A stretch of 36,718 bases of DNA from Bacteroidaceae bacterium (GTDB taxonomy: Bacteria > Bacteroidota > Bacteroidia > Bacteroidales > Bacteroidaceae). This document shows, in pieces, positions 1,643 through 31,577 of the stretch. Location: NCBI GenBank assembly GCA_017483665.1, contig JAFUVM010000077.1, positions 1 to 36,718 of the forward strand, given 5' to 3'. A program made the translations under genes and the position numbers. The notes under the pieces were generated by a model. The model saw nothing but the letters and a program-made list of their open reading frames with translations, was not told the DNA's origin and did not search any database. Every line of letters starts with the position of its first letter. Positions within the stretch are counted from its first letter, which is position 1.

Positions 1643-1752
1643 CGCGCTTATTCCGGAAGCGCCTCGCGCTTATTTCAGAAACGCCTCGCGCTTATTTCGG
1701 AAGCGCAAGGCGCTTATTTTGGAAGCGCACGCCGTGTCAGGGATAAGCGCAC
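1643..1752. repeat. Five-unit 22-base tandem array (array 1)
   Basis: Five contiguous 22-base units lie in the spacer between the GH127 stop and the mmdA promoter. The first three are near-identical and built on GCGCTTATTCCGGAAGCGC, which has complementary arms GCGCTT/AAGCGC. The fourth differs slightly and the fifth is diverged (GTGTCAGGGATAAGCGCAC). The spacing stays exactly 22. The same unit, in reverse orientation, makes up the array at 19922. The rest of the 336-base spacer holds the mmdA promoter, the palindromic element and an AT run at 1578-1593. Confidence 0.85.
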
Positions 1753-1770
1753 GCGGTTGTTCCCGGAGCC

Positions 1771-3780
1771 TCACTTTGTCAGGGACTGAGCGCCGCCGGG
1801 AGTCCGGCCTTCCGCTTCGGGCAACCAGACGCGCATCCTGCCGGCGCCACGGTGACACCAAGCATAGTACGGGATGAGCGTCAAGGGCTGGTCCTCTGCG
1901 ATGAGCGTCGCTACGGGTGTGCCTGCTATCTCTGTCCGTCCGAAGCTAAACTTCGTGTGAGGACTGACACAAGCCTCTTCCACATTCATATTGCCGGCGG
2001 AATGTTCCGCACAATATACGAGCGGACCACATTCCACACAGAGCATCCCGCGGTCGGCCTCAACCTTGTCGTTGGCACGGACGACGCGGGGCTCCATCCA
2101 GAAATTGACATCCACCTCGTCGCCCGTCTTCCACTTGCGGTCGATGGTCAGGTAGCCGTCCTCCCCGATCGGATTGTCGGAAGACAGAATCGTCATGATT
2201 TGCTTGCCTTTGTTCTTGATGACAACGGAATAACCCGACTGCTTGCCATCAACATACTGATAGAGGTCGGAAGGCACCGGCCTGTCCTTTGCCCATCCCG
2301 GTATGCGAATCTTCATGGCGAAGCGGCCTGCCCTGTTCTTATCGATGCGCAGGGTGATGTCCGAACAGAACGGATTGTCCGCTCTGCCCCAAGGATAGTT
2401 TGTCGTCTGGCTCAAGCGGACGTCCTTGCCTCCGACCTTCAGTTCGGCACTATTGGAAAGGAAGAGGTTGACGTAGAGACTGCGGTCCTTGACGGCATAG
2501 ACGTAGCCCGGCAGCGAGGGGATGAAGCGGCAGATGTTGCTGGGGCAGCAGGCACAGCCGAACCACGGCTTTCGCTCATACCCGCCTGCCGACTCGAGGG
2601 GATTGGGATAGAAGAAGCCGTTGCCTTCGAGGGAAACGCCGCTGAGGAGGCCGTTGTAGAGGGTCCGCTCCAAGACATCGTAGTATTTCGACGCGCCATG
2701 AAGCAGGAAGAGACGATGATTGACGTAGACGTTCCCTATCGCGGCACACGTCTCGCAATAGGCCGACATGTTGGGCAACTCGTAGTTCCCCGCGAAGGCC
2801 TCGCCATTGGCGGTCGCTCCGATGCCGCCCGTGATGTAGAGCTTCTTGGAGACGATATTGTCCCAAATGGCATCGACGGCCTTGACGTAAGCCTGGTCGC
2901 CCGTCAGTGCCGCCACATCCGCCATGCCGGCATACATATAGGCGGCGCGGACGGCGTGTCCCACAGCCTCGTCCTGCTCCACGACGGGCTTGTGAGCCTG
3001 CGAATACTCGTGCTTGATGGTGGTCTTGCCGCGGTAGTCGAGGAAGAACTTGGCTTCGTCGAGATACTTCCGGTCGCCCGTCGCGAGGTAAAGCTTCGCC
3101 AGAGCCATCTCGGCAATCTGATGGCCGGGAACGACACAAGCCTGACCGGGATTAGGACCTACCTCCTTGCAGACGAGGTCTGCATAGCGGATGGCAATGT
3201 CGAGGAACTTGCGGCTTCCCGTTGCCTGAAAGTGGGCAATCGCAGCTTCGACCATGTGCCCCAGGTTGTAAAGCTCGTGGCTTCCCTGCTCTTCCGCACT
3301 CCATCGCTTCGGTCCGGCCCAGCCGTGAGGGTGTTCGGGGTTTTGTGTTCTGCCTGTAAAGAGATAGCCGTCAGGCTCTTGGGCTGAGGCAATCACGTCC
3401 AGGACCGAGTCGATATAGGCCTCCAGAGCCTTGTCCGGATAGGTTTGCAAAATGTAGCTCGCGCCCTCGATGGTCTTGTAGGGGTCGGTATCGTCGAAGG
3501 GAAAAGTGCCTTCCTTTATGTCGAAGACACGCGAAGGGTTCTGCAGATGCTCCGCCGCATTGGAGAAGTTCGTGTAGCGGCCTGTTTCCTCGCATTTCGA
3601 GAAAGCAAGGGGAACGGTCACTTTGCGGCTCGCCTCCAGGCGTTGTCCCCAGAAAGTGCCGGGAACCACCTTGACGGAAGTGAAGGGAACAGGCGTGATG
3701 GGATAGCCTTTCGGCGTTTGCGAACCGGCTGGCAGCAGGCAACATGTGAGTGCGGCAATCGAAGTGAGAAGTGATTTCAT
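1771..3780 (-). CDS. GH127 family beta-L-arabinofuranosidase, secreted
   Basis: Length is 669 residues from the ATG at 3780. The longer open frame to 3849 only runs into the upstream gene, and the ATG at 3780 begins a good signal peptide (MKSLLTSIAALTCCLLPAGS). The GH127 core fits the known cysteine mechanism. Glu327 in GEAF lies 16 residues before Glu343 of CETC, the same spacing as acid/base Glu322 and ligand Glu338 in Bifidobacterium HypBA1. Cys345, Cys411 and Cys412 (CACCPSN) complete the zinc site, with Cys411 matching the nucleophile. The family removes beta-L-arabinofuranose from plant arabinan side chains or hydroxyproline-linked arabinosides. The start lies 10 bases after the preceding gene's stop, so the two are probably co-transcribed. 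Substrate is inferred from family only. Confidence 0.93.
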   Translation of the reverse strand: MKSLLTSIAALTCCLLPAGSQTPKGYPITPVPFTSVKVVPGTFWGQRLEASRKVTVPLAFSKCEETGRYTNFSNAAEHLQNPSRVFDIKEGTFPFDDTDPYKTIEGASYILQTYPDKALEAYIDSVLDVIASAQEPDGYLFTGRTQNPEHPHGWAGPKRWSAEEQGSHELYNLGHMVEAAIAHFQATGSRKFLDIAIRYADLVCKEVGPNPGQACVVPGHQIAEMALAKLYLATGDRKYLDEAKFFLDYRGKTTIKHEYSQAHKPVVEQDEAVGHAVRAAYMYAGMADVAALTGDQAYVKAVDAIWDNIVSKKLYITGGIGATANGEAFAGNYELPNMSAYCETCAAIGNVYVNHRLFLLHGASKYYDVLERTLYNGLLSGVSLEGNGFFYPNPLESAGGYERKPWFGCACCPSNICRFIPSLPGYVYAVKDRSLYVNLFLSNSAELKVGGKDVRLSQTTNYPWGRADNPFCSDITLRIDKNRAGRFAMKIRIPGWAKDRPVPSDLYQYVDGKQSGYSVVIKNKGKQIMTILSSDNPIGEDGYLTIDRKWKTGDEVDVNFWMEPRVVRANDKVEADRGMLCVECGPLVYCAEHSAGNMNVEEACVSPHTKFSFGRTEIAGTPVATLIAEDQPLTLIPYYAWCHRGAGRMRVWLPEAEGRTPGGAQSLTK

Positions 3781-3790
3781 ATCGGGATGA

Positions 3791-6676
3791 TTAAGGTTTG
3801 TGTTGATTGTTCCAAAGCAGAGTGCCGTCGGGGGTCTGTCCCTCGGCATCGACGGAGAGCACGGAGGTGCGGCAGTTGTTGTAGAAAGTCACCATGGCCT
3901 CGCCGTTCGCGTCCAGTTGGAGGTCGGGATTCCAATAGAGTGTGCGGCGGTAGTCGGACGCCGCGGCTCCCGTCGGGGGAAGCGTTGTGTTGCTGTAATC
4001 CGGCGAATAGAACTCGGCGGGATAGGCAAAGCCGGGGATGACATAGCGGCGGTCGCGGTAGGTCATACGGCGGGAGCCGTCGGGGAAGGGATAGCGGACG
4101 AGCTTCGTCTTGGGCTCTTGGCTGCCGTAATACATGCTGTTGCCATACTGCCGCGGGCTGTAGTCGGAGTAGAAGACGTACGTGTCCCACACCCCATTGC
4201 CTTTGTATTCCATCGCTTCGCCAGGCGACATGTCGAAGTTAAGCGTTGACATGAGGTACTTCCTTGCATAGAGGGAATCGGGAGGAACCTTGATGCCCCG
4301 CATGCTGAGCAGCATTCTGCGCGTTCGTCCTACGCCGTCGCGAATCTGGAAGGTCCCTTCCTGTCCCTCCGCCACCTTCCTCTCTATCACGCCAACGCCG
4401 AAGTCTGCCGTCATGACCTGCATGAAGCCCAAGCCCACATCCTGCACGATGTTGTTTGCTTCATCGGCATCGATGGAGAAGACGGGCCAGGTGTCGTCGA
4501 ACTTATTCAGGCCGCGTCGCTTGGACTTCACCGTCACTTCGCTCATGATGGTCTCGTCATTCTGCTTTATCCACGCTCCGTCTGCCCCTTCCTGCTGCGG
4601 TATGGGCGCAAGATGACTCTGATAGAACGAGTAGGGATTCACGAACCTCGGGTAGGGCCAACTGATGCGGGCGAGGTAATCGGGATGTTCCACCAGTATC
4701 TTTCGCCTGAGCTTCCTGCTCGCAGGCAAGTACATGTAGTCCGTCTCGATGTCGTCCGGTGCTGCCTGAACCCAGGTGTAGGGCTTTTTCTTCTTCCACT
4801 TTGTGGTGTCGGCCACGCTGACAAAGACGACCGCCGACCCGTAGTAGGGAGGCAACTGGATGCGGAAACCTTTCCTGTAGGTCTCGCTTTCGCCGACGAA
4901 GGGGGCTTTCACATCGAGCGGAACTATCTCGGCATGAACCTTGAGCTCCTTGCCGTTCTTCCGATTCTTCTTGTTGACGGCTTTGTCGTACGCCCTTTCT
5001 TCCCGCGACTTGCTCCTTCCTTTGGAGAAGAGGTCGGGCAGGTCCATCGGTCTGGTCGCATAGCCTCCGCCCTCGTTAGGGTTCCTTCCGTCTTCGCTGA
5101 AAGCATCTTCCTCGTCGTTCTCCGACACACTGTTTACCTTGTCGGCATCAACGAAATCGGCAAGGACATTCTTGTAGGTGTTGCCAATCAGTATGGGAGT
5201 CCGCTCGGCAGGCTGCGTAATGTCCCACGTCCCCGCCACCGCCATGCTCCGCCAGTCAAAGCGACGCCAGCCCTGAGTCAGCATCAGGAGGTCGAGGGCG
5301 GCACGGTGAAGGGAGTCATCCGCCTCGAAGTACCAGCCGGGTTGGGGCACGAAGCCGCGTATCTCGCTCGAGAGAAGCATCTCAGTCAGGATGTTGGAGT
5401 CGTCGTAGAGGAAGTCTCTGTGATTGTCATCTCTGACCGTAATTGATATGTCTGAAGGGCCGCCGGAAGCTTTCAGGGTGAGGTTGACTGGTTCGTAGGG
5501 CTGGTATTCCTCCTTCAGACCCTCGATGCTGAGGGTGGGCTTCAAGTCGTTTTCGTTTCTGTTAAAGAAGATTCTGTCGGCAAAGACGCGGCCCTGAGAG
5601 TCGAAGACGGTCAGCTGGTAGATGCCAGAACAAGCCTCTCCCCGACCCTCTCCCAAGGAGAGGGAGAAAGAGCCGCTCGATTCCCCCCTCCTTCGGAGGG
5701 GCAGGGGGAGGCTTTTCCCCTCACACATCAGGCTCACGCCCAAGCTGTCGGCGGGCAGGTCGGCTGTATGTCTTATCTGCGCCACCCAGCCGCTGTCGGT
5801 CTGTTCCACTTTCAGGGAGACGCCCGTCGGCTCGGGTTTCGGCAACAGGGCCGTGGCGGTCTTGCCGTCTTTGCTCACGAAGAAGACTTCCTTTTCCTGT
5901 CCATTCTGCGGAACGACCTCGAAGAGTCCGCGGCCACGATGCTGCGTCCCGACCGAATCTCCCTGGTAATGGAGCCAGCCTTCCGCCCACTCTCCATCGT
6001 CGAAACAGGCCTCGAAAGCCACCCGGCAAGGCAGTCCCTCCACGAGGTTGCCGCCTTCGGGATAGAGGGAAAGCTTCAGCTGGCGGTTCTCTGCCGGATT
6101 GGGATAGAGGCGCCGCATGGCCCGCAGGGTCATGTCGTGGGTGTATTCGCCAGGCTCAAGGGGTTTGTCGTAGACGGGGAACACGCGGCTGTAGAGCTTC
6201 TCATAGTCGCGGAAGTACTCCCACTCCTGCCGTTTGCTCGGGAACCACTCTTTTATCTTTTCGGTATGCCGTCGCTCGAAGCGTCCCCAGTTGAGCTGCC
6301 ATCGGGTGTAGGCCCTGAGTTCGTAGAAGCCGGCATACTGGATTTGTCTGCTCAGGGCGAAGAATCCCTGGCCGCGACCCTCTTTCATCTGGATGAGTTT
6401 GCGCTCTATCATGTACCCCTCCTGCCCGAAAAGCTCCACATAGAGCACGCCGCTCACGTCGGAAGGACGGCCCGTATCGGTGCGGCGCAGGTAGGCCGAG
6501 AACCAGATTGTATCGCCGAGCTGGTAGCTGGTGTTGTCCATGTGGACGAAGACCTTCTCCTGCGGAATGGTCCGGCCAAAGGCAGACTGCCTCTGGGCAA
6601 GCTTGTCGAGCCCCGACTCCTGAGCGAGAGCCAGGATGGGCAGCAGGCAGAGAAGGAGAAAAGCTTTCGTGTTCAT
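3791..6676 (-). CDS. Bacteroidetes-type secreted MG2/TonB-plug-like protein, 961 residues
   Basis: This begins with a signal peptide (MNTKAFLLLCLLPILALAQ). It continues with EKVFVHMDNTSYQLGDTIWF, typical of the macroglobulin-like MG2 segment in large Bacteroidetes envelope proteins. The C-terminal third carries a plug-like region (DVGLGFMQVMTADFGVGVIE) and a segment of the type YWNPDLQLDANGEAMVTFYN found at the end of this family. No enzymatic motif was seen; such proteins are usually left unnamed and are thought to act at the outer membrane or periplasm. It has its own promoter at 6739-6770 and leads an apparent operon with the GH127 gene. Residues about 321-349 are encoded by an 83-base double palindromic element inserted without breaking the frame. 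The Gly/Arg/Glu/Leu/Ser-rich translation there is unlike the rest of the protein. Confidence 0.8.
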   Translation of the reverse strand: MNTKAFLLLCLLPILALAQESGLDKLAQRQSAFGRTIPQEKVFVHMDNTSYQLGDTIWFSAYLRRTDTGRPSDVSGVLYVELFGQEGYMIERKLIQMKEGRGQGFFALSRQIQYAGFYELRAYTRWQLNWGRFERRHTEKIKEWFPSKRQEWEYFRDYEKLYSRVFPVYDKPLEPGEYTHDMTLRAMRRLYPNPAENRQLKLSLYPEGGNLVEGLPCRVAFEACFDDGEWAEGWLHYQGDSVGTQHRGRGLFEVVPQNGQEKEVFFVSKDGKTATALLPKPEPTGVSLKVEQTDSGWVAQIRHTADLPADSLGVSLMCEGKSLPLPLRRRGESSGSFSLSLGEGRGEACSGIYQLTVFDSQGRVFADRIFFNRNENDLKPTLSIEGLKEEYQPYEPVNLTLKASGGPSDISITVRDDNHRDFLYDDSNILTEMLLSSEIRGFVPQPGWYFEADDSLHRAALDLLMLTQGWRRFDWRSMAVAGTWDITQPAERTPILIGNTYKNVLADFVDADKVNSVSENDEEDAFSEDGRNPNEGGGYATRPMDLPDLFSKGRSKSREERAYDKAVNKKNRKNGKELKVHAEIVPLDVKAPFVGESETYRKGFRIQLPPYYGSAVVFVSVADTTKWKKKKPYTWVQAAPDDIETDYMYLPASRKLRRKILVEHPDYLARISWPYPRFVNPYSFYQSHLAPIPQQEGADGAWIKQNDETIMSEVTVKSKRRGLNKFDDTWPVFSIDADEANNIVQDVGLGFMQVMTADFGVGVIERKVAEGQEGTFQIRDGVGRTRRMLLSMRGIKVPPDSLYARKYLMSTLNFDMSPGEAMEYKGNGVWDTYVFYSDYSPRQYGNSMYYGSQEPKTKLVRYPFPDGSRRMTYRDRRYVIPGFAYPAEFYSPDYSNTTLPPTGAAASDYRRTLYWNPDLQLDANGEAMVTFYNNCRTSVLSVDAEGQTPDGTLLWNNQHKP
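5632..5714. repeat. Double GC-rich palindromic element inserted in frame in the 961-residue protein gene
   Basis: Two copies face each other. Copy one (5632-5666) begins AAGCCTCTCCCCGACC and contains CTCTCCCAAGGAGAG. Copy two (5681-5714) is its near reverse complement, containing CCCTCCTTCGGAGGG and ending GGGGGAGGCTT. Each copy can form its own hairpin and the pair forms a larger one. The layout (lead AAG, C-rich run, two spacer bases, palindrome) matches the elements at 1478, 13653 and in htpG, but this is a distinct sequence subtype. Confidence 0.75.
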
Positions 6677-6738
6677 TCTTGTCGTGCCGTCTGTTGTTTA
6701 CAATGCCAAAAGCCTCGTTTTGCAACAGAAAGACGCCA

Positions 6739-6770
6739 CAAAGTTACGAAGAAACCATGAAAGTTGCAAA
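6739..6770 (-). promoter_or_regulatory. Promoter of the 961-residue protein / GH127 operon
   Basis: On the minus strand the -7 box TAACTTTG (6739-6746) has a TTTG (6767-6770) 20 bases upstream, matching the Bacteroidetes TTTG-n19-TAnnTTTG pattern. It lies about 63 bases before the start codon at 6676. Confidence 0.65.
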
Positions 6771-6776
6771 CTTCAC

Positions 6777-6832
6777 ACGTTAAGTTTGCCGACTAAGCAC
6801 GCTAAGTTTGCCGACTAAGCACGCTTATTTTA
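6777..6832. repeat. Short 22-base tandem array (array 2) between divergent promoters
   Basis: Two near-identical 22-base units (6777-6798, 6799-6820) are built on TAAGTTTGCCGACTAAGCAC. A third partial copy (ACGCTTATTTTA) follows. The array sits between the divergent promoters of the 961-residue protein and the MATE gene. Confidence 0.75.
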
Positions 6833-6864
6833 CACATTATGCCTGTTAACTCAACTTTTTTTCG

Positions 6865-6872
6865 TAATTTTG
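6865..6872 (+). promoter_or_regulatory. -7 promoter box for the MATE gene
   Basis: TAATTTTG matches TAnnTTTG and lies 67 bases before the ATG at 6940. A T-rich stretch precedes it, and no perfect -33 TTTG was seen. Confidence 0.55.
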
Positions 6873-6939
6873 CAGCCGCAAAGTGAGAGCAGAACGTCTC
6901 GACCTGAAGAATCGTGAATCGAAAACAGTCAAACAGTAA

Positions 6940-9209: not shown

Positions 9210-9306
9210 GGGATAGAGATTAGGGATTAGAGAATAGAGATTAGGGATTAGGGATTAGAGAATAGGGGATTAGAGATTAGAGAATAGGGATTAGAGATTA
9301 GAGATA
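9210..9306. repeat. Degenerate GATTAG-type intergenic repeat
   Basis: About 95 bases consist of imperfect GATTAGGGATTAGAGAATAG-like 7-8 base units starting right after the stop codon. A related TTAGAG-rich stretch lies at 13024-13077 before another ECF gene. No coding or promoter signal was seen inside. Confidence 0.75.
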
Positions 9307-9371
9307 AAGGATTAAAGTTTGAGGCTGAAGGGGAGTTTCACCGGACGCCAAACTTTAATCCTTATTTTTTT
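9307..9371 (+). terminator. Perfect 15-base stem followed by a T run
   Basis: AAGGATTAAAGTTTG (9307-9321) and its exact reverse complement CAAACTTTAATCCTT (9349-9363) enclose a 27-base loop. A run of T (9365-9371) follows. It ends the small secreted protein transcript; the AT-rich stem is unusual for an intrinsic terminator. Confidence 0.6.
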
Positions 9372-10382: not shown

Positions 10383-10856
10383 ATGAAACAGACAATACTA
10401 CTCATCTGTGCCCTCGCCCTGAGCGCAGCCCTGGCAGCACAGCCTCATCGGGGCAAGTTCAACCCCGAGGAGTTCAAGGCAAAACTGGAGAACTTCATCA
10501 CCGCAGAGACCGGCTTCACGCCCGCAGAGGCACAAGCCTTCTACCCTATCTACCACGAGATGAAGGAGAAACAGCGCAACCTGCAACGCGAGATATTCCG
10601 ACTGAAAAAGGATGCTCCGGACAGCAACGCCAGCGACAAGGACTTTGCCCTCGTCATCCAGAAGATAAAAGACCTGGGCGCAGAGATGGCCGGACTGGAG
10701 GTCACCTACTACAAGAAAATGTGCAAGGCCGTATCGCCGCGCAAAGTCTATGCCGCCATGCAAGCCGAGGACAAGTTCCACCGACAGATGCTGGAGGAGT
10801 TCGGCCACAACAACCCGCATGCCAAAGGCCACGGACAGAGACACAAGAACGAGTAG
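10383..10856 (+). CDS. Spy/CpxP-like periplasmic helical protein
   Basis: The 157-residue product has a signal peptide (MKQTILLICALALSAALAAQ) and an otherwise charged, helical body. It includes ETGFTPAEAQAFYPIYHEM and a long Lys/Glu/Arg helix, resembling Spy-like envelope chaperone/sensor proteins found behind ECF genes in Bacteroidetes. The His-rich tail (HNNPHAKGHGQRHKNE) could bind metal. It is the third gene of the sigma operon and ends before a good terminator. Assignment is by general architecture, as no strict LTxxQ motif was seen. Confidence 0.7.
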   Translation: MKQTILLICALALSAALAAQPHRGKFNPEEFKAKLENFITAETGFTPAEAQAFYPIYHEMKEKQRNLQREIFRLKKDAPDSNASDKDFALVIQKIKDLGAEMAGLEVTYYKKMCKAVSPRKVYAAMQAEDKFHRQMLEEFGHNNPHAKGHGQRHKNE

Positions 10857-10893
10857 AACGAGACCGTAAGGTATTAGATTGTTTTAGTAGGAG

Positions 10894-10930
10894 AAGGGAT
10901 GTGCCCGTTTCAGGACACGTCCCTTTTTTT
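10894..10930 (+). terminator. Rho-independent terminator of the first ECF operon
   Basis: AAGGGATGTG (10894-10903) pairs with CACGTCCCTT (10916-10925), ten pairs with one G-T wobble, followed by T to 10930. Confidence 0.8.
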
Positions 10931-11218
10931 GTAGCCACGAGAGATAAACTTCTTCGCCACGGGTCATAAACCTCTTCGCCACGAGAAATAAACTTCTTAT
11001 CTTCGAGAAACAAAATTCTTATCCACGAGAAACAAAATTCTTATCCACGAGAAACAAACATCTTCACCCCGCGGGATAAAATTATTTCAGTGGTTCGGAA
11101 ATATATTTCAAAGGCTTGGAAATAGATTTCAAAGCCACGGAAATATATTTCCAAGCCACGGAAAAAGTTTTATCGCGGGCGGCGGGAAAGTTTGTTGCGG
11201 GCGGCGGGAAAGTTTTCT
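10931..11218. repeat. Long degenerate 22-base array (array 3) in a convergent spacer
   Basis: About thirteen units fill the whole space between the terminator and the mazG stop codon. The core CCACGAGAAA/CACGGGTCA recurs 22 bases apart: the A of CACG falls at 10937, 10959, 10981, 11025 and 11047, with a diverged unit (TTCGAG) at 11003. The filler drifts from ATAAACTTCTT through ACAAAATTCTTAT to GAAATATATTTC, ending as GCGGGCGGCGGGAAAG twice. One step is off by a base or two near 11090-11160. No coding or promoter signal was seen. Confidence 0.8.
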
Positions 11219-11225
11219 CCCCCCG

Positions 11226-12011
11226 TTATTCGGCTTTCTTGGCTTCGTTCCAGAGGATATCCATCTGCGCCAGGGTCATGTCCTTCAGCTGGAGTCCCTG
11301 CTCTTTGGCTTTTTGCTCGACGTAGTTGAAGCGGCGTGTGAACTTCTGGTTCGTGTGCTCCAAGGCGTTGTCGGGATTGATGTGGTAGAGGCGGGCGGCG
11401 TTGATGAGCGAGAAGAGGAAGTCGCCGTACTCGGCAGTCTGCCGCTCGATGTTGTCCTCCTGCCGCAGTTCGGCCTCCAGCTCGCCGAGCTCTTCGCGCA
11501 CTTTGTCCCAGACGTCCTCCTTCTTGTCCCAGTCGAAGCCGACGGCCCGCGCTTTGTCCTGGATGCGATAGGCTTTGATGAGCGACGGCAGCGACTTCGG
11601 TACGCCTCCGAGCACCGTTTTGTTGCCGTCCTTTTCCTTCTGTTTGATCTGTTCCCAGGCGTTTACGACGTCGCCGGCTGTCTTGGCAACTGCGTCGCCA
11701 TAGACGTGGGGATGGCGGAAGATGAGCTTGTCGCAGAGCTTGTTGCAAACGTCGGCAATGTCGAACTGCCCTTTCTCGCTGCCTATCTTGGCGTAGAAGA
11801 CGATGTGGAGGAGCACGTCGCCCAGCTCTTTCTGTATGTTGGGGACGTCGTCGTTAAGCAGGGCATCGCAGAGCTCGAACGTTTCCTCTATGGTGTTGGG
11901 GCGCAGGCTCTCGTTGGTCTGCTTGTGGTCCCAGGGGCATTTCTCGCGGAGTTCGTCCATCACGTCGAGCAGGCGCCCGAAGGCCTGCAGCTTTTCTTCT
12001 TTCGTATGCAT
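11226..12011 (-). CDS. mazG: Nucleoside triphosphate pyrophosphohydrolase MazG
   Basis: At 261 residues this matches E. coli MazG in length and duplicated layout. The N-terminal domain has CPWDHKQT (25-32), the metal-binding EExxE at 42-46 (EETFE) and the KELGDVLLHIVFYAK helix. The C-terminal domain repeats it (REELGELEAEL ... YGDFLFSLINAARL). The enzyme hydrolyses NTPs and dNTPs to monophosphates and pyrophosphate, cleaning the nucleotide pool. It is a single minus-strand gene with its own promoter, which overlaps an inverted repeat at 12056-12081. The 3' end meets a 22-base repeat array. Confidence 0.96.
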   Translation of the reverse strand: MHTKEEKLQAFGRLLDVMDELREKCPWDHKQTNESLRPNTIEETFELCDALLNDDVPNIQKELGDVLLHIVFYAKIGSEKGQFDIADVCNKLCDKLIFRHPHVYGDAVAKTAGDVVNAWEQIKQKEKDGNKTVLGGVPKSLPSLIKAYRIQDKARAVGFDWDKKEDVWDKVREELGELEAELRQEDNIERQTAEYGDFLFSLINAARLYHINPDNALEHTNQKFTRRFNYVEQKAKEQGLQLKDMTLAQMDILWNEAKKAE

Positions 12012-12055
12012 AGTTCAGAAGTTTAGTCTTTTTAGTGTTATCTTGGTTCAAAATT

Positions 12056-12081
12056 TGCACAAAGGTACATCTTTTTGTGCA
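12056..12081 (-). promoter_or_regulatory. mazG promoter overlapping an inverted repeat (possible operator)
   Basis: The minus-strand -7 box TACCTTTG covers 12060-12067, about 50 bases before the start codon. It overlaps the left arm of the perfect inverted repeat TGCACAAA (12056-12063) / TTTGTGCA (12074-12081), which has a 10-base spacer. A dimeric regulator could bind there. Confidence 0.5.
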
Positions 12082-12139
12082 GAAAACAGGTCCGAAGCAC
12101 AGATAAATCGCCGCCGAGGGCCAAATAATTTAAGAAATG

Positions 12140-12171
12140 TTTGCATATGTGGGGAAAAAACTCGTACTTTG
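12140..12171 (+). promoter_or_regulatory. Promoter of the second ECF sigma factor gene
   Basis: TTTG (12140-12143) is followed 21 bases later by TACTTTG (12165-12171), one base short of TAnnTTTG. The leader to the ATG at 12251 is about 75 bases. Confidence 0.5.
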
Positions 12172-12250
12172 CCTCGTCAAACAAGTATTAACGCACTAAA
12201 ACCGATTGCCTATCGAAGAACATTACTCCAAAACATCACTTTGAGACGTA

Positions 12251-12841
12251 ATGAATACATTATCTGCAATGACCGACCATGAGTTGGCCAGATTGTACGA
12301 GGAAGGCAACGACAGTGCGTTCGACATTCTGCTCGACCGCCACAAGGATTATATCTACTCCTACATCCTGTTCCTGGTGAAGGACAGCGATGAGGCCAAC
12401 GATTTCTTTCAGGAAACCTTCTCACGCGCCATTACAGCCATCCGCTCGCACCGTTATCAGACGAACGGCAAGTTCAGCGCCTGGCTCACCCGCATCGCGC
12501 ACAACCTCGTCATAGACAAGAGCCGCGACAGCGAGTCGACGAAGACCGTACGCGAGAACCTCGTGAAGCCCAAGACCCTGAACAGCCTCAGCCTGAGCGA
12601 ATCCACGCACGAGGACAAGATCATCGACCGCCAGACCCGTCGCGAAATACGTCGCATACTCGACTATCTGCCCGAGCCTCAGCGCGAAGTCATCCTGCTG
12701 CGTTTCTACGACGACCTCTCCTTCAAGGAGATTGCCGAGCAGACCGGCGTCAGCATCAACACGGCGCTCGGCCGCATGCGCTACGCGCTCATCAACCTCC
12801 GCAAGCTCATCGGGCAGAAGCAGTTCAGCCTCGTAGGATAG
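12251..12841 (+). CDS. ECF-family RNA polymerase sigma factor (second of three)
   Basis: The protein is 196 residues. Region 2 is DSDEANDFFQETFSRAITAI followed by FSAWLTRIAHNLVIDKSR. A linker rich in Ser and Glu leads to region 4, with LPEPQREVILLRFYDDLSFK and the helix-turn-helix EIAEQTGVSINTALGRMRYA. The region 4 fit is excellent. Unlike its two neighbours it has no partner gene directly downstream; only about 240 bases with a repeat array separate it from the third sigma gene. This may mean it is controlled by something other than an adjacent anti-sigma factor. Confidence 0.95.
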   Translation: MNTLSAMTDHELARLYEEGNDSAFDILLDRHKDYIYSYILFLVKDSDEANDFFQETFSRAITAIRSHRYQTNGKFSAWLTRIAHNLVIDKSRDSESTKTVRENLVKPKTLNSLSLSESTHEDKIIDRQTRREIRRILDYLPEPQREVILLRFYDDLSFKEIAEQTGVSINTALGRMRYALINLRKLIGQKQFSLVG

Positions 12842-12867
12842 ACATCCCATACATTATTATATTATAT

Positions 12868-12905
12868 AACGTGCTGCGCCGACCGACGTGGCACGTTTCG
12901 TTTGC
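12868..12905 (+). terminator. Possible terminator hairpin after the second ECF gene
   Basis: AACGTGC (12868-12874) pairs with GCACGTT (12891-12897) around a 16-base loop, followed by TTCGTTT. The T run is interrupted, so the call is weak. The downstream CACG at 12892-12895 is also in phase with the following 22-base array. Confidence 0.4.
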
Positions 12906-12907
12906 AG

Positions 12908-12995
12908 ACTTCACACGCGAAAACAGAGAACTTCACACGCATAGTCGGACTTTTTCACCCGTGTTGTTATACATTTTCGCCCGTTCGGGTAATAT
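12908..12995. repeat. Four-unit 22-base array (array 4) before the third ECF gene
   Basis: CTTCACACGC occurs at 22-base spacing (the CACG A at 12915 and 12937). Two diverged units follow at the same phase (TTTTCACCCGTG, then TTTTCGCCCGTTCGGG). Only the 10-base core is kept; the remaining 12 bases of each unit differ. TATACTTG at 12993-13000 just after it is a weak promoter-like box. Confidence 0.7.
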
Positions 12996-13077
12996 ACTTG
13001 TAGAGAAGAGAAGCAAAAGTTGAGGGTTGAGAGTTTAGAGTTGAGAGTTTAGAGAAATGGGGTTAGAGCTTAGAGAA

Positions 13078-13665
13078 ATGGTCAGTCAGCAGGCATTCAT
13101 GGACGACGCGACGCTCGTTGAGCGTATTCTGGACGGGCAGACGCAGCTGTTCCGGCTCGTGGCGGAGCGCTACGCCGAGCACCTGATGCGGATGGTCCGC
13201 CGCATGGTGCCCTCGAGGGAAGACGCCGAGGAGGTGACGCAGGACGCCCTCGTGGAGGCCTTTCGCAGCCTCGCCCGCTTCGACAGGCAGCAGGCAAGCC
13301 TCCAGACATGGCTCATGCGCATCGCCTATCACATGGCCTTGAAGCACTACAGACAGAGCCTGAAGTCGGTTCCCCTCGCGGACATCGGGCAGGAATGGCT
13401 CGACAAGCAAAGCTCGACGTTAGTCAACTTGTCCGACGACGAAGCCGACGCCCTCCTCTCCGACACGTCGGCCGACCGCATCGCGCAGCTCGAGCGAGCC
13501 ATCGACCTGCTGAAACCCGACGACCGGATGCTGCTCGGCTTCTACTACTACGACGACTGTTCCATCAAAGAGATACAGGAAATCACCGGTCGCGACGGGG
13601 GCTATCTGCGCTCGCGGCTGCAATGGATAAGGAAGAAACTGGCAAAGGAAATAAGGACCCCCTAA
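13078..13665 (+). CDS. ECF-family RNA polymerase sigma factor (third of three)
   Basis: Region 2 is clear (SREDAEEVTQDALVEAFRSL, then SLQTWLMRIAYHMALKHYR), as is region 4 (LKPDDRMLLGFYYYDDCSIK with IQEITGRDGGYLRSRLQW). Three in-frame ATGs (13057, 13078, 13099) are possible. I rejected 13057 because it lies in a TTAGAG-type repeat running to about 13077; 13099 (MDDATLVERILDG) also fits family N-termini. The last residues (RTP) and the stop codon come from a GC-rich palindromic element at 13653-13680, so the original C-terminus was probably altered. The gene leads a short operon with a membrane protein and a lipoprotein. Confidence 0.9.
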   Translation: MVSQQAFMDDATLVERILDGQTQLFRLVAERYAEHLMRMVRRMVPSREDAEEVTQDALVEAFRSLARFDRQQASLQTWLMRIAYHMALKHYRQSLKSVPLADIGQEWLDKQSSTLVNLSDDEADALLSDTSADRIAQLERAIDLLKPDDRMLLGFYYYDDCSIKEIQEITGRDGGYLRSRLQWIRKKLAKEIRTP

Positions 13666-16540: not shown

Positions 16541-16595
16541 GACTGAACGTGGGATGTTTTCTGACTTAACGTGCAAAACATTCGGACTTTCGCTA
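16541..16595. repeat. Short 22-base array (array 5) between the TPR and nucleotidyltransferase genes
   Basis: GACTGAACGTGGG (16541), GACTTAACGTGCA (16563) and GACTTTCGCTA (16585) start exactly 22 bases apart. The last unit runs into the TPR stop codon at 16593. In the reverse sense the core reads CACGTTAAGTC, close to the ACACGTTAAGTTTGCCGAC of array 2. Confidence 0.65.
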
Positions 16596-19921: not shown

Positions 19922-20110
19922 GCGCTTCCGGAATAAGCGCGAGGCGCTTCTGAAATAAGCACGAGGCGCTTCCGAAATAAGCACGAGGCGCTTCCGGAAT
20001 AAGCGCGAGGCGCTTCTGGAATAGGCACGTGTCGCCGGGACTTTTATCACGCGTTGCTATGACTTCAGGCACGTGTCGCAGAGACTTTTACCACGTGTGT
20101 CTGTTCACGG
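19922..20110. repeat. Composite 22-base array (array 6), reverse-oriented relative of array 1
   Basis: Eight full 22-base units plus part of a ninth. Units 1-5 (19922-20031) are GCGCTTCCGGAATAAGCGC type, the reverse complement of array 1. Units 6-8 (20032-20097) switch to TCGCAGAGACTTTTACCACG type. Each unit ends in CGAG, CACGAG, CACGTG or CACGCG at the same phase, so the switch of filler sequence did not disturb the 22-base register. The array fills the spacer between the DPP III stop and the HEAT gene start. Confidence 0.88.
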
Positions 20111-22562: not shown

Positions 22563-22605
22563 GTCGATAGTGTTCTTGTTGTTCCCGGAATCGGGTTCCA
22601 GGGAG

Positions 22606-23367: not shown

Positions 23368-23397
23368 CAACTAAGCGTTTTATTGCGTTTACCGCCG

Positions 23398-23428
23398 CAA
23401 AGTTACAAAAAAAACAAAAAGTTACAAA
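23398..23428 (-). promoter_or_regulatory. Promoter of the glycerophosphodiesterase gene
   Basis: Minus-strand TAACTTTG (23398-23405) with TTTG (23425-23428) 19 bases upstream, the canonical spacing. Confidence 0.65.
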
Positions 23429-23462
23429 ATAAACAATAAAAAAATGATTCTTTCGGACTTTT

Positions 23463-23495
23463 CTTGCATTATTTGCAAAATAAATCGTAACTTTG
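23463..23495 (+). promoter_or_regulatory. Promoter of the TIR-like / ATPase / DUF4435 operon
   Basis: TAACTTTG (23488-23495) has CTTG (23463-23466) 21 bases upstream. The leader to the first ATG is about 35 bases. No operator-like inverted repeat was seen beside it. Confidence 0.6.
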
Positions 23496-23536
23496 TCCCT
23501 TACGAGAGCGTTTGAACACACCAAAAAGAACACACC

Positions 23537-24064: not shown

Positions 24065-24070
24065 AGAGAC

Positions 24071-24886: not shown

Positions 24887-24895
24887 TAGAAGGAA

Positions 24896-28145: not shown

Positions 28146-28209
28146 AGTTTCGAAGATTACACATTATTATATTATTCAACTTTCGGAAGTTATAAAATGG
28201 AGTTAAATA

Positions 28210-28332
28210 GGAAGTAATGCGCTACGCGCAGGGAGTAAAGCCAACATGTTGGCTGGACGATAGCTTTGGATGCTGACGGCCTATGTGGTATTGTCCTTTT
28301 ATAAATTCCATGAGCGTAGCGAATTAACTTCC
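28210..28332. repeat. Inverted-repeat element of about 120 bases in the GH92-aldolase spacer
   Basis: The left arm GGAAGTAATGCGCTACGC (28210-28227) is nearly the reverse complement of GCGTAGCGAATTAACTTCC (28314-28332). Inside lies the perfect 16-base palindrome AGCCAACATGTTGGCT (28239-28254). The flank has GAAGTTAAA-type 12-base repeats on the minus strand (28325-28356). It could be a relic of a small mobile element or a structured RNA; no coding frame is present. Confidence 0.6.
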
Positions 28333-28409
28333 ATTTTAACTTCCGCTTTAACTTCAGAAACTTGAGTTATATTATATAGGGCGACGAACCGTACGGGATG
28401 TCTTTTCTA

Positions 28410-28632
28410 CCACGAATTACACGAATTGCACGAATTATTTTTATGTTAGCTCGCTCTGATTTGTTTGCGACTTCTTGGGGTTAAGAATTCTTATGCCGTA
28501 GTCAGTTCGCTAAGCCACGGTTTCGTCTCTTCACGCTTTTAGCGAGTCAATTCGTGTAATTCCTGTAATTCAGGATTGATATCTTCTCGTTTTTTAGCGA
28601 GTCAATTTGTGTAATTCGTGTAATTCGTGGTT
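28410..28632. repeat. CACGAATTA-type 9-base repeats with an inverted partner
   Basis: Three 9-base units CACGAATT(A/G) at 28411-28436 are matched in reverse by AATTCGTGT-type units at 28605-28630. A similar decayed unit lies at 28549-28573, preceded by AGCGAGTCAATT as is the one at 28597. The remainder of the 518-base spacer shows no gene or clear promoter. Confidence 0.6.
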
Positions 28633-28663
28633 AAACACTATAGCTTCAATCCGCAATTCGGGG

Positions 28664-29500
28664 TTACTGAACTCTGCGGTTGCTTTCGAAGAGCCTGATG
28701 TGGTCGGCAACGACCTCGCGCGAGGCATCAATCATCACCTGTTTCAGGGAGATGTAGTCCTCGTCGGGTTTCTGTGCCAGGCGCTCCGTGATGCGTTTCA
28801 TGATGCCCCGCTGGATGGCAGTCGCCACGTTGATCTTGCAGATGCCGCCCCGGATGCAGGCCTTGAAGTCCGCTTCGCTGGTGCCGCTTCCGCCGTGCAG
28901 GACGAGCGGCAGGCGGTTTGCCTCGTGTATCTCGATGAGGCGTGCGATGTTCAACTGCGGGGTGTGTACGTAGTGTCCGTGCAGGTTGCCGATGGCTACG
29001 GCCAGGGCGTCAATGCCCGTCTGCTGCACGAAGCGGACCGACTCGTCGACGTCGGTGAAGACGTCCGCCGTGTCCACTCCCGAGTTGCCCACCTTTCCCA
29101 GCTCGGCCTCGACGTCCACTCCGGCGGCTTTGGCGATGCGTGTCACCAATCCGCTGGCTGCCACGTTCTCCTCAAAAGGCAAGGCCGCCCCGTCGAACAT
29201 CACGGAGGTGAAGCCCAGACGGATGGCGCGGACGCAGGTCTCGACGCTCTGTCCGTGGTCGAGATGCACGCAGACGGGCACCGACGACCGCCGCGCGGCC
29301 TCGAGGTAGAGCGGGGCCATCAGCTCCATCGGCGCTTCGGGGAACTGCACCTCGGCCAGTTGCAGGATGATGGGCGAACGCAGCTCCTCGGCGGCTTCAA
29401 GTGCCCCCATTACGTTCTCCAGACTCAGACAGTTGAATGCGCCCACGGCGTAGTGCCGCTCATTGGCGTCTCGCAGTATTTCACTTAGTGTTACAAGCAT
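28664..29500 (-). CDS. Class II fructose/tagatose-bisphosphate aldolase family protein
   Basis: The 278-residue protein shows all class II aldolase stations: AFNCLSLENVMGALEAAEEL, HLDHG at 79-83 (catalytic Asp81, zinc His82), GFTSVMFDGAALPFEENV, VEAELGKVGN, GNLHGHY, and LVLHGGSG followed by KINVATA. These bind zinc and the phosphate of dihydroxyacetone phosphate. The length suits the GatY/KbaY/short FbaA group. The physiological sugar (fructose- or tagatose-bisphosphate, or another) cannot be told from sequence. It is a single gene with its own promoter at 29530-29560. Confidence 0.93.
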   Translation of the reverse strand: MLVTLSEILRDANERHYAVGAFNCLSLENVMGALEAAEELRSPIILQLAEVQFPEAPMELMAPLYLEAARRSSVPVCVHLDHGQSVETCVRAIRLGFTSVMFDGAALPFEENVAASGLVTRIAKAAGVDVEAELGKVGNSGVDTADVFTDVDESVRFVQQTGIDALAVAIGNLHGHYVHTPQLNIARLIEIHEANRLPLVLHGGSGTSEADFKACIRGGICKINVATAIQRGIMKRITERLAQKPDEDYISLKQVMIDASREVVADHIRLFESNRRVQ

Positions 29501-29529
29501 ATCCGTTCGTTTTTATGGTATTGTCCTTG

Positions 29530-29560
29530 CAAAATTATGAAATCCTTCGCACATAACAAA
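29530..29560 (-). promoter_or_regulatory. Promoter of the aldolase gene
   Basis: Minus-strand TAATTTTG (29530-29537) with TTTG (29557-29560) 19 bases upstream, 30 bases before the ATG. Confidence 0.65.
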
Positions 29561-29622
29561 CTTTTTTCGCTTTTATTTTCTGATACGCTTCCTCTTTGCA
29601 CGGAAAATCAGAGATTGGAATA

Positions 29623-29719
29623 ATTGACCAATGCACGAGCCTTTACAGAAAAAGAGGTTCCAAGGAATGCAGTACAACAACCCCTCGGCCTCACCCCAAA
29701 GCAGATGAGGGAATTGTGA
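29623..29719 (+). pseudogene. 3' remnant of a second Rpn-family gene
   Basis: This stretch (AATGCACGAGCCTTTACAGA to GCAGATGAGGGAATTGTGA) is a decayed copy of the last 95 bases or so of the Rpn-family gene at 29944, matching 30803-30900. Small deletions shift the frame. It indicates that a tandem paralogue once stood directly upstream and lost everything but its end. The 224 bases from here to the intact gene hold short CGGATT-type repeats and the promoter at 29880-29911. Confidence 0.75.
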
Positions 29720-29879
29720 TACTCAACATCCAAGACTTTAACGACAACGGATTGAACGGATTTGACGGATTTTCTGGCAGAAGTGGTAAACTATTTCCTG
29801 CTCAATTTCCGGCAAAGGGCCTTGTTTGGCAGGAATGTGTGCCGTTTCGCACATTTCTTCCGTCTGCCAGACACAAAGA

Positions 29880-29911
29880 TTTGGAGCATAACGATAAAAG
29901 TTGTACCTTTG
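29880..29911 (+). promoter_or_regulatory. Promoter of the Rpn-family gene
   Basis: TTTG (29880-29883), 20 bases, then TACCTTTG (29904-29911). It fixes the start at the ATG 29944 rather than the longer open frame from 29596. Confidence 0.65.
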
Positions 29912-29943
29912 TGGCAGAAACTAATATAAGGGAGGGCGACACT

Positions 29944-30900
29944 ATGGCAAAAGACAAATACGTACGCTTCGACTGGGCTGCCAAGCGCATGCTCCGCAAC
30001 AAGGCCAACTTCGGCGTGCTCGAGGGACTCATCACAGTGCTACTCGGACAGAAGATACAGATTGTCGAAGCCATCGAAATGGAGTCCGTACAACAAATCG
30101 ACATGGTTCGTGATGTACAAGACTATCGGAACCGATCTTTCTTCCTTGCCAAAGATTTACATGGTGAGGTTTTTATGATTGAGTTGCATGTTGTCCGCCT
30201 TCTTTACTATTATGAGCGCATCCTCTATGGCGTAGCGAAATCAATCACCGAGCACATACAGCTCGGCGACAAGTACGACAAGGTAAAGAAGGTCTATAGC
30301 ATCAGCATCCTCTACTTCGACCTCGGCAAGGGTGCTGACTACCTCTACCACGGGCAGACTACCTTCAAGGGCGTACATACCGGCGACACGCTGCAGATTA
30401 CAACAAAGGAGAAAGATGTCATCGAGATGAAGACACCCGAACAAATCTTCCCCGAGTACTTTCTCATCCGCGTAAACGAGTTCAACAAGGTGGCGACGAC
30501 CCCGCTGGAGGAGTGGCTCGACTACCTGCGCTCGGGCCATATCAAGGATGACACTACGGCTCCCGGACTGCAGGAAGCTCGCCGACAGCTACAGTACATG
30601 CAGATGCCGCGCGAGGAACAGATTTCCTACGACCGCCATCTGGATGCCATCATGATTCAGAACGATGTCATCTCCACGGCACAGAAAGAAGGAAGGGCTG
30701 AAGGTCGGGCTGAAGGAAGGGCTGAAGGAAGGGCTGAAGGAAGGGCTGAAGGAAGGGCTGAAGGAAGGGCTGAAGGCATTGCCCAAGGAAGAGCCGAAGA
30801 GAAATTAGCCAATGCACGAGCCTTTATAGAAAGGGGGTTCCCAAGGGATGTCGTACAACAAACCCTCGGCCTCACCGACGAGCAGATGAAGGAGCTGTAG
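29944..30900 (+). CDS. Rpn family recombination-promoting nuclease / PD-(D/E)XK transposase-like protein
   Basis: The 318-residue protein starts MAKDKYVRFDWAAKRMLRNK, the N-terminus of the Bacteroidetes Rpn/transposase_31 group. The PD-(D/E)XK core runs through residues about 60-85, with FMIELHVVRLLYYYERILYG containing the acidic Glu80. The helical middle contains GVHTGDTLQITTKEKDVIEM and PEQIFPEYFLIRVNEF. Near the end are tandem EGRA tetrapeptides from a 12-base DNA repeat, typical of the family, then ARAFIERGFPRDVVQQTLGL. Members promote RecA-independent recombination in E. coli or act as selfish nucleases. A decayed second copy lies just upstream. Confidence 0.88.
   Translation: MAKDKYVRFDWAAKRMLRNKANFGVLEGLITVLLGQKIQIVEAIEMESVQQIDMVRDVQDYRNRSFFLAKDLHGEVFMIELHVVRLLYYYERILYGVAKSITEHIQLGDKYDKVKKVYSISILYFDLGKGADYLYHGQTTFKGVHTGDTLQITTKEKDVIEMKTPEQIFPEYFLIRVNEFNKVATTPLEEWLDYLRSGHIKDDTTAPGLQEARRQLQYMQMPREEQISYDRHLDAIMIQNDVISTAQKEGRAEGRAEGRAEGRAEGRAEGRAEGRAEGIAQGRAEEKLANARAFIERGFPRDVVQQTLGLTDEQMKEL
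30688..30777 (+). repeat. 12-base tandem repeat encoding EGRA
   Basis: GAAGGAAGGGCT is repeated about seven times with few changes (one GGTCGG variant). Its length being a multiple of three allows copy number change without a frameshift. Confidence 0.9.
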
Positions 30901-30930
30901 CACCTTCCTCCACCTCCGCTTCTGAGTACA

Positions 30931-30990
30931 GCAGACAGAAGGCATCCCCTTCGCCCACACCGGGCTACTATGGGATGCCCTTTCTGCTTT
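30931..30990. terminator. Bidirectional terminator-like hairpin
   Basis: GGCATCCC (30941-30948) pairs with GGGATGCC (30972-30979), extended by CAGA/TCTG outside, followed by TGCTTTCTTTT. It sits between the convergent Rpn and HRDC-like genes. Confidence 0.55.
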
Positions 30991-31007
30991 CTTTTGCCGC
31001 ATCGCCA

Positions 31008-31325
31008 CTATGGATGCGGGCGGGACATGTACCTTGTTCTTTCCTTTTGAACTATACCAGGCAAGGCAAGAGCTATAGGGCACTGTGCATGGCCGGCATA
31101 GTCGCCCTCGCATATCTTGCCGAGGTTGATGCCGACTGCCAGTTCCTCATTCGTGAAGACAAGATATGCTGGCAGTGACTCCTGGGTGGCAATGGTGCGA
31201 CGTATGGCTTTCAGCCGCTCGACAGCGGGATAATGAATACTTTTATTTGCATTATCCGCATTCGTACCACCGAACTTGAATAACATATCATATAGTTTTT
31301 GCAGAAACATCTGCAATTCTGTCAT
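31008..31325 (-). pseudogene. HRDC-like domain fragment, probably decayed
   Basis: From the ATG at 31325 the 105-residue frame reads MTELQMFLQKLYDMLFKFGG, then YPAVERLKAIRRTIATQESL and PAYLVFTNEELAVGINL. This resembles the start of an HRDC domain, the nucleic-acid-binding module at the end of RecQ-type helicases. The end departs from the family after LALPGIVQKERTRY, which suggests a truncation or frameshift. No helicase domain is attached. A short stand-alone HRDC protein cannot be excluded. The surroundings (30901-31891) otherwise contain only a terminator, a repeat array and another relic. Confidence 0.5.
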
Positions 31326-31429
31326 AGTGTATACAATCTTCCACAAAATGAATCGCTTACTATATGACAGATGGTGTGACAGATGTGACAGAGAAAGTGA
31401 AAAGATTAAAAAAATAAAAGGTTTTGCTC

Positions 31430-31577
31430 GTTGACTTCGTCGACCTGACGGTTGACTGCGTCAATCTAAAGCTTCCCGGCACGTGGGAACGATGGGTTCG
31501 GCACGTGGGAACGATGGGTTCGGCACGTGGGAACGATGGGTTCGGCACGTGGGAAGCTTTAGCTCGACGAAGTCAAC
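31430..31577. repeat. 22-base array (array 7) framed by inverted repeats
   Basis: Three and a half exact 22-base units (31478-31555) are built on GGCACGTGGGAACGATGGG. They are framed by CTAAAGCTTCCC (31466-31477) / GGGAAGCTTTAG (31551-31562), a perfect 12-base inverted pair. Outside that is GTTGACTTCGTCGACCT (31430-31446) / AGCTCGACGAAGTCAAC (31561-31577), 16 of 17 matching. Unlike other arrays the units are identical, so this one may be recent. Confidence 0.88.

What the first reader, a model, noticed from the sequence alone, without database searches (positions are those of the whole stretch)
1643..31577. Unrelated intergenic repeat arrays share one 22-base period across the window
Seven spacers hold tandem arrays whose unit length is 22 bases (1643-1752, 6777-6832, 10931-11218, 12908-12995, 16541-16595, 19922-20110, 31430-31577). 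The unit sequences differ from array to array, yet the step is constant and most units keep a CACG-like core at a fixed phase. Constant length with changing sequence argues against simple slippage of one satellite. It points to selection on spacing (about two helical turns, so the same face of DNA is presented) or to an enzyme that copies units of fixed length. Arrays occur in tandem, divergent and convergent spacers, so they are not promoters or terminators in the usual sense.
Basis: partly seen in the sequence, partly recalled or inferred. Interest (0 to 1): 0.82.

Follow-up and report, generated by a model that had tools for sequence, protein, structure and literature searches.

The report
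Intergenic 22-base repeat arrays, period conserved
A group of rumen bacteria carries many short head-to-tail DNA repeats between its genes; their sequence changes from species to species but their step length stays at 22 bases, which suggests that the spacing, more than the sequence, is what is being kept.

Summary
All seven intervals show a lag-22 signal that 0 of 500 shuffles reach. In 1.8 Mb of stretches from 51 genomes of the genus, 97 of 131 arrays left after removing microsatellites have period 22, 17 have 21 (15 of one palindromic type) and 2 have 23. Nearly all are intergenic; in tandem spacers 41 of 55 lie nearer the upstream stop codon. They are not all unrelated: two families hold 58 of the 97, and the window arrays at 1643 and 19922 are one family in opposite orientation. 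Against a sister species arrays differ by exactly 44 and 66 bp and units are homogenised. Off-step units are rarer than the local indel rate predicts: 4 seen, about 23 expected. One unit per family, there is a tendency to dyad symmetry. I read them as intergenic minisatellites whose two-turn register is constrained, probably by something that recognises repeated symmetric DNA; that factor is inferred. Closest known: BrickBuilt of Porphyromonas gingivalis (23 nt), whose shared leader and tail are not seen here. New variant of a known kind.

The parts
1635..1757 (+). 22-bp array, family A (4-5 good units plus degenerate ones), tandem spacer; the lag-22 run ends 11 bp from the upstream stop codon
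   Evidence: TRF period 22; lag-22 38/44; distance; sister has a longer array of a different homogenised variant, with an assembly gap inside
6774..6839 (+). 22-bp array, family B (3 units), divergent spacer
   Evidence: TRF; the sister is shorter by exactly 44 bp here
10926..11080 (+). 22-bp array (7 units), left of the 21-bp element, convergent spacer
   Evidence: TRF; lag-22 41/44; fewer units in the sister
11077..11175 (.). 21-bp palindromic element: end half-core, three full GAAATATATTTC-like cores, four 9-bp spacers, end half-core
   Evidence: same plan in 10 of 10 distinct copies found (7 own sample, 3 sister); core-9-core pattern at 159 places in the own genome
11164..11216 (+). short 22-bp array right of the 21-bp element
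   Evidence: TRF, 2.3 copies, 6% indels
12884..12996 (+). degenerate 22-bp array (4-5 units), tandem spacer, 3' of an ECF sigma-factor gene (12293-12841)
   Evidence: lag-22 27/44; 1 mismatch in 159 bp (12842-13000) to the sister; the same spacer holds 22-bp arrays of other sequence in relatives
16541..16595 (-). degenerate 22-bp array (2.5 units), tandem spacer
   Evidence: lag-22 27/44; the sister spacer does not align
19922..20110 (-). 22-bp array: 5 family-A units followed in the same register by 3 units of another, B-like sequence; tandem spacer
   Evidence: TRF rows 19922-20029 and 20026-20098; the sister is shorter by exactly 66 bp
31477..31555 (+). 22-bp array, 3.6 identical units, tandem spacer
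   Evidence: TRF 100%; the unit recurs on other contigs with 1-3 mismatches
31430..31443 (+). left inverted arm of the 31477 array (14 bp)
   Evidence: arms of 14 or more also occur in 7 of 702 control pairs
31564..31577 (-). right inverted arm of the 31477 array (14 bp)

Best explanation
These are dispersed intergenic minisatellites of a Bacteroidaceae lineage. Shown: the arrays sit between genes, in tandem spacers mostly nearer the upstream stop codon; they gain and lose whole 22-bp units; units inside an array are homogenised; unit sequence turns over between species while the step stays 22; one-base shifts between neighbouring units are several times rarer than the indel rate of nearby spacers predicts; counted one per family, units tend to be self-complementary. 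Inferred: the step is kept because something reads the array as a row of symmetric sites two helical turns apart (22 bp is two turns at about 11 bp per turn, the value I recall for negatively supercoiled DNA), most likely a dimeric DNA-binding protein of the nucleoid or of gene ends, acting between the end of one gene and the promoter of the next. The lack of orientation bias fits a symmetric DNA site better than a stranded RNA signal. The binder is not identified.
For: Period: 97 of 131 filtered arrays at lag 22 in 51 genomes of the genus; spacing of family-A neighbours 22 in 46 of 46 (own) and 17 of 17 (sister) (no place counted twice). Register: 300 steps of 22, 4 of 21, 0 of 23, one each of 18 and 28, with 1457 differences in 6600 sites; a simulation with the local ratio of small indels to substitutions (11 to 189) predicts about 23 steps of 21 or 23 per 300. 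Whole-unit change: 44 and 66 bp. Homogenisation. Position kept, sequence changed: the spacer 3' of the ECF sigma gene shows lag 22 (27 or more of 44) in 14 of 22 loci with at least 75% protein identity. 3' bias: 41 of 55, medians 59 bp to the stop and 187 bp to the start, binomial p 0.0004; divergent spacers with an array 17 against 153, others 75 against 404, p 0.04. Dyad symmetry: 13.1 of 22 against 11.0 on 36 family representatives, z 8.0; 13.9 against 11.4 on 20 arrays of other genera, z 6.8. Orientation: A 12 opposite and 6 same, B 5 and 4.
Against: No protein, footprint or expression data. In the own genome the 22-bp units do not exceed permuted units in stem length (5.19 against 4.94, 27 arrays) and only 24% of all 34 own arrays have dyad p below 0.05. 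CACG is not general. W/S composition has no 11-bp sub-period. The neutral indel rate rests on 11 small indels, and an indel can affect two steps. 3' placement may only be avoidance of promoters. Outside the genus the regime is thin: 3 arrays of period 22 in 352 kb of 20 other genera and 0 in 323 kb of 18 wider stretches, 0 in 257 kb of the 73-82% PurA group; in Prevotella-like genera 21 and 23 occur too (7 and 3 beside 13 at 22).
Confidence: 0.4

Rival explanations
1. Neutral minisatellites: the arrays descend from a few ancestral 22-bp arrays and spread and drift by slippage, unequal exchange and gene conversion; the period is simply inherited because out-of-step units are not recombined onward.
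For: Whole-unit differences, homogenised centres and degenerate edges, two unit sequences in one register in an array (L010, L028, window 19922), ECF-locus arrays that by eye are mostly family-B variants, no general core.
Against: Fewer off-step units than the substitution level predicts; 34 further unit families with the same step; one array with 1 difference in 159 bp, though picked after the fact. Homogenisation that needs register could by itself produce the deficit.
Confidence: 0.35
2. RNA-level element: the arrays are transcribed 3' ends whose repeats fold into long imperfect hairpins (22 bp is two turns of A-form helix, recalled) that protect or end transcripts.
For: 3' bias; dyad tendency; predicted RNA energy of three consensus units is below that of permuted units in all six 22-bp groups, e.g. 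-20.3 against -15.2 and -22.1 against -14.3; [quoted passage not shown]
Against: No orientation bias; own and close-clade units fold only slightly better than permuted ones (-20.5 against -18.7; -12.8 against -11.1); no Rfam family at gathering score in the window.
Confidence: 0.15
3. BrickBuilt-like MITEs: mobile elements with terminal inverted repeats that carry a minisatellite.
For: Tandem 22-23 nt units, intergenic, same order of bacteria; the 31477 array has 14-bp inverted arms and lies in a stretch that does not align with the sister loci fetched.
Against: 120-bp flanks of 34 own arrays (those under 60 bp left out) share nothing except parts of the 21-bp element, overlaps of neighbouring rows and one pair of 77.5% over 80 bp; inverted arms equal the control in mean length (6.85 both, 27 arrays of period 22).
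Confidence: 0.07
4. An enzyme that writes units of fixed length (template-copying polymerase).
For: Fixed step with many sequences.
Against: Neighbouring units differ at 22% of sites; arrays are shared by descent with the sister.
Confidence: 0.03

Closest known systems
BrickBuilt minisatellite/MITE of Porphyromonas gingivalis (PMC4596501; abstract, section 5, section 7 part 1 of 2 and section 8 read)
   Same: Tandem units of similar length (23 nt) without spacers, intergenic, imperfect units, unit number differs between strains, same order Bacteroidales
   Different: One unit family in 19 places with leader, tail and terminal inverted repeats; here 36 unit clusters in the genus, more places, no shared leader or tail seen, step 22, sequence turnover at a kept position
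22-, 23- and 41-nt tandem direct repeats of P. gingivalis W83 (mentioned in PMC4596501 section 7; the original paper was not seen)
   Same: 22-nt tandem repeats in a Bacteroidales genome
   Different: Only their existence is mentioned there; no positions and no period constraint
REP / REPIN elements (PMC3733652, PMC3116915: search listing with the start of the abstract only)
   Same: Short, dispersed, extragenic, high copy, partly palindromic
   Different: Described as single or paired palindromes, moved by a RAYT transposase (recalled); here head-to-tail arrays of fixed step
CRISPR arrays (recalled)
   Same: Regular repeats in intergenic DNA
   Different: Here repeats abut without unique spacers

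Membership tests
BrickBuilt-type minisatellite MITE | Head-to-tail units of about 23 nt without spacers, intergenic | tested here: met
   22 rather than 23; 29 lag-22 runs intergenic and 0 coding in the own sample; 1 of 97 genus arrays in a called gene
BrickBuilt-type minisatellite MITE | Leader and tail shared between copies | tested here: not met
   Flank comparison of 34 own arrays; sample of 12% of the genome
BrickBuilt-type minisatellite MITE | Terminal inverted repeats | tested here: not met
   Mean arm 6.85 as in the control; one array of 27 has 14-bp arms, while 7 of 702 control pairs reach 14
REP/REPIN | Palindromic extragenic repeat in high copy | tested here: inconclusive
   High copy (397 family-A units at up to 2 mismatches); dyad symmetry as a class but not in own 22-bp units by stem length
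REP/REPIN | Cognate RAYT (Y1 transposase) in genomes that hold the repeats | tested here: inconclusive
   One partial Y1_Tnp match over the cut-off in G000, G053 and G066; none in G052, G012, G020, G016 and G112, the first four of which have arrays; genomes are incomplete
CRISPR | Repeats separated by unique spacers | tested here: not met
   Units abut at 22 bp
CRISPR | Adjacent cas genes | not tested
   No cas search was made
Bacterial minisatellite (VNTR) | Unit-number change and homogenisation at orthologous loci | tested here: met
   44 and 66 bp differences to the sister; homogenised variants; between species, not strains

The most novel reading that the evidence does not exclude
A lineage-wide class of register-selected DNA: intergenic arrays in which base sequence is nearly free but a two-turn, dyad-symmetric spacing is under selection, read by a so far unknown symmetric DNA-binding factor that tolerates fast sequence change, or co-evolves with it, at the 3' ends of genes.
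Probability: 0.2. Interest if true: 0.85.

Novelty: new variant of a known kind. Interest (0 to 1): 0.6.

Why it matters
If the step is selected, DNA can be under strong constraint on spacing while its letters are almost free, which alignment-based conservation scans cannot see. About 75 arrays of period 22 per Mb in the own-genome sample (27 in 361 kb) would then be an unrecognised layer of gene-end or chromosome organisation in rumen Bacteroidaceae. If it is neutral, it is still an unusually clean natural test of how minisatellites keep their period while their sequence turns over.

Tried and rejected
Palindrome as a rule for every array: not borne out for the own 22-bp arrays (one search gives p below 0.05 in 24-50% of arrays in five of six larger groups and in 2 of 2 of the smallest, so a tendency), then found as a class tendency with one unit per family. 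Hairpin RNA as the main cause: weak. The miRNA-like Rfam scores over the 21-bp element are far below gathering score and I take them as an effect of an AT-rich palindrome. CACG as common core. 11-bp W/S sub-period: none. MITE with shared ends: not seen. RAYT: inconclusive. Phage carriage: 0 exact matches of the family-A pattern in viral contigs. The plasmid search used purA only, not an array. Consensus promoter and terminator scan of 10800-13100: 0 and 3 found, 1.2 and 2.6 expected. A and B as one family: 11 of 22 in the CACG register, p 0.10. Paper searches for intergenic tandem repeats of this kind gave BrickBuilt as the only relative; the library holds open-licence papers only. Passages of PMC5771137 mention BrickBuilt twice and no 22-bp repeat.

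Selections that bear on the counts: arrays explained by a period of 12 or less (mostly 7-mers) were removed, and the lag-21 counts include them. L079-L085, members of the genus, were left out of the group counts (they are). The 17 close-clade and 23 distant stretches were chosen around the ECF sigma gene, so 11 of the 30 close-clade arrays are that one locus, and density there (30 in 300 kb) is inflated. The four G053 stretches and one G013 stretch were taken from contigs with family-A hits. One family-level stretch (G128) was taken at a family-B pattern hit. The arrays were found by a gapless test, so arrays broken by indels are under-counted; the simulation passes through the same test, with 1-base indels, equal base composition and independent units. 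In one search the spacers that hold an array were not restricted to 120 bp or more, while the totals were.
Full report
What was asked.

Setting. The window is a whole contig (G000:C10) of a 3.06-Mb genome in 150 contigs, 78% complete. Its PurA is 98% identical to that of Prevotellaceae bacterium UBA4336 (contig DGTM01000037.1); the next relatives are Bacteroidaceae/Prevotellaceae MAGs, many from the rumen and gut. That record and G053:C50 have the same length, 60,289 bases, so I treat G053 as the sister species.

Check of the observation. All seven intervals have 22 as best lag; 0 of 500 shuffles reach the score at any lag 15-30. TRF reports five of the seven. In the own-genome sample (window plus 20 stretches, 361 kb) lag 22 gives 29 runs, all intergenic, none in called genes. 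With microsatellites (period 12 or less) removed and one lag per array, the own sample gives 22:27, 21:7 and one each at 18, 27 and 39. The seven at 21 are one palindromic family.

Breadth. Ten further genomes of the genus (706 kb): 22:33, 21:6, six others. Seventeen of the close clade (300 kb, stretches chosen around one gene, 11 of the 30 arrays at that locus): 22:30, 21:3, three others. Twenty-three more distant ones (440 kb): 22:7, 23:2, 21:1, three others. In sum 97 of 131 are at 22. Loci around purA in other lineages: 22:7 with three others (173 kb, 83-86% PurA identity); no 22 in 257 kb of the 73-82% group; 22:13, 21:7, 23:3 and eight others in 840 kb of Prevotella-like and other genera. 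Twenty other genera of the family (352 kb): 22:3, 21:3, nine others; 18 stretches of the wider phylum (323 kb): 22:0, 21:1, three others. So the strict regime belongs to this genus, with a thinner echo in relatives. These are stretches, not whole genomes; density is 75 per Mb in the own sample and 47 per Mb in the ten other genomes.

Relatedness of units. The 97 genus arrays fall into 36 clusters at 16 of 22 identical bases in any rotation and strand; shuffled pairs never reached 16 in 3000 trials. Family A (31 arrays, like GCGCTTATTTCGGAAGCGCCTC) has 397 copies in the own genome and 169 in G053 at up to two mismatches, six in G013, one each in G020 and G055 and none in the other 56 of 61 genomes; the reversed control pattern gives 0 in the own genome and one hit each in G008 and G041, so single hits are at chance level. 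Family B (27 arrays, like AACACGTTAAGTTTGCCAACTT) is common in the close clade. The window arrays at 1643 and 19922 are family A on opposite strands. Some arrays hold two unit sequences in one register (L010, L028, window 19922). A and B agree at 11 of 22 positions in the CACG register, not significant (p 0.10). CACG occurs in 11 of 36 family representatives against 5.7 expected; GGAA, CGGC and GCAA are as enriched.

Dynamics. Against the sister, the 6774 array is longer by exactly 44 bp and the 19922 array by exactly 66 bp. Central units are homogenised to different variants while outer flanks are conserved. The sister assembly has a run of N inside the 1635 array. The spacer 3' of the ECF sigma-factor gene (12293-12841; Pfam sigma regions 2 and 4) shows lag 22 at 27 or more of 44 in 14 of 22 loci with at least 75% protein identity, with very different units; in the other eight the downstream DNA looks unrelated by eye; the next eight loci (63-66% identity) have none. 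In own genome and sister this array is degenerate but almost frozen: one difference in 159 bp, where spacers outside arrays differ at 10%. This spacer was picked after the fact; of three others counted, 22563-22605 is identical over 43 bp, 12012-12292 has 21 differences in 281 and 23368-23536 has 15 in 165.

Is the period constrained or only inherited? Between neighbouring units of the 97 genus arrays the best step is 22 in 300 cases, 21 in 4, 23 in 0, with one each at 18 and 28; neighbours differ at 1457 of 6600 sites. Spacers outside arrays differ from the sister by 189 substitutions and 13 indels, 11 of them of 3 bp or less, in 1882 sites. A simulation with that ratio and the same detection gives 108 steps of 21 or 23 beside 1389 of 22, hence about 23 expected for 300; at higher divergence it gives 113 beside 1172. 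The deficit is about sixfold; it rests on 11 indels, and an indel can touch two steps. Homogenisation that requires register could cause the same pattern, so selection is not proven.

Symmetry. By stem length the own 22-bp units do not exceed permuted units (5.19 against 4.94, 27 arrays); the 21-bp family does (12.3 against 5.2, 7 of 7). With one unit per family, self-complementarity exceeds the null in the genus (13.1 against 11.0, z 8.0, 36 families) and in 20 arrays of other genera (13.9 against 11.4, z 6.8). Some species have perfect palindromes, for example L039.

Position. In tandem spacers 41 of 55 arrays lie nearer the upstream stop; medians 59 bp to the stop and 187 bp to the start (p 0.0004). 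Spacers that hold an array (21 or 22) against spacers of at least 120 bp: divergent 17 of 153, tandem 57 of 335, convergent 18 of 69; divergent against the rest p 0.04. Genes were called with a simple hexamer model, not a standard gene finder. Of the 97, one fell in a called gene and 12 had no flanking pair of called genes. Orientation relative to transcription is not biased.

The 21-bp element. All 10 distinct copies found (at least three cores with up to 3 mismatches were required) have the same plan: half-core, four 9-bp spacers, three full cores, half-core. The core-spacer-core pattern occurs at 159 places in the own genome, several per element, so several dozen copies. Similar 21-bp palindromes occur in G013, G086 and G090. 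It is often joined to 22-bp arrays on one or both sides. Its fixed unit number contrasts with the 22-bp arrays.

Mechanism. The data support minisatellite dynamics plus a length constraint. The most economical reading of the constraint is a symmetric DNA site repeated every two turns; this is inference. The 11-bp-per-turn argument and the general behaviour of REP elements are recalled, not taken from a call.

Known relatives. BrickBuilt of P. gingivalis (PMC4596501; abstract, section 5, part 1 of section 7 and section 8 read) is the nearest; it differs by its leader, tail and inverted ends, which the 34 own arrays compared do not share. No paper on a conserved 22-bp period was found in the searches named under Tried and rejected.

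Noticed in passing
window 9210-9314, 13018-13054; many own-genome stretches: 7-bp microsatellites (TTAGAGA, CATAGTT and similar) are frequent in spacers and give lag 14 and 21 peaks; both window ones differ in length from the sister.
   Followed up: partly
window 11077-11175; 159 core-pair places in the own genome: A 21-bp palindromic element with exactly four spacers in 10 of 10 copies found, often joined to 22-bp arrays; it may be a separate functional element.
   Followed up: partly
window 28146-31800: Stretch largely without alignment to the sister loci fetched; holds 9-bp repeats, a PD-(D/E)XK nuclease-transposase gene and the array with 14-bp inverted arms.
   Followed up: partly
window 30688-30776: 12-bp repeat (GAAGGAAGGGCT, 7.4 copies) inside the PD-(D/E)XK gene 29944-30900.
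   Followed up: no
36 genus unit families: Purine/pyrimidine class is anti-correlated at positions 11 bp apart in the unit (8.8 same of 22 against 10.9, z -3.8; weaker in other genera, z -1.7); it was the strongest of 33 lag tests on these units.
   Followed up: partly
   Followed up: no
L268 (sister), 1635 array: The sister assembly has a run of N inside this array, so short-read assemblies may break or misjudge such arrays.
   Followed up: no
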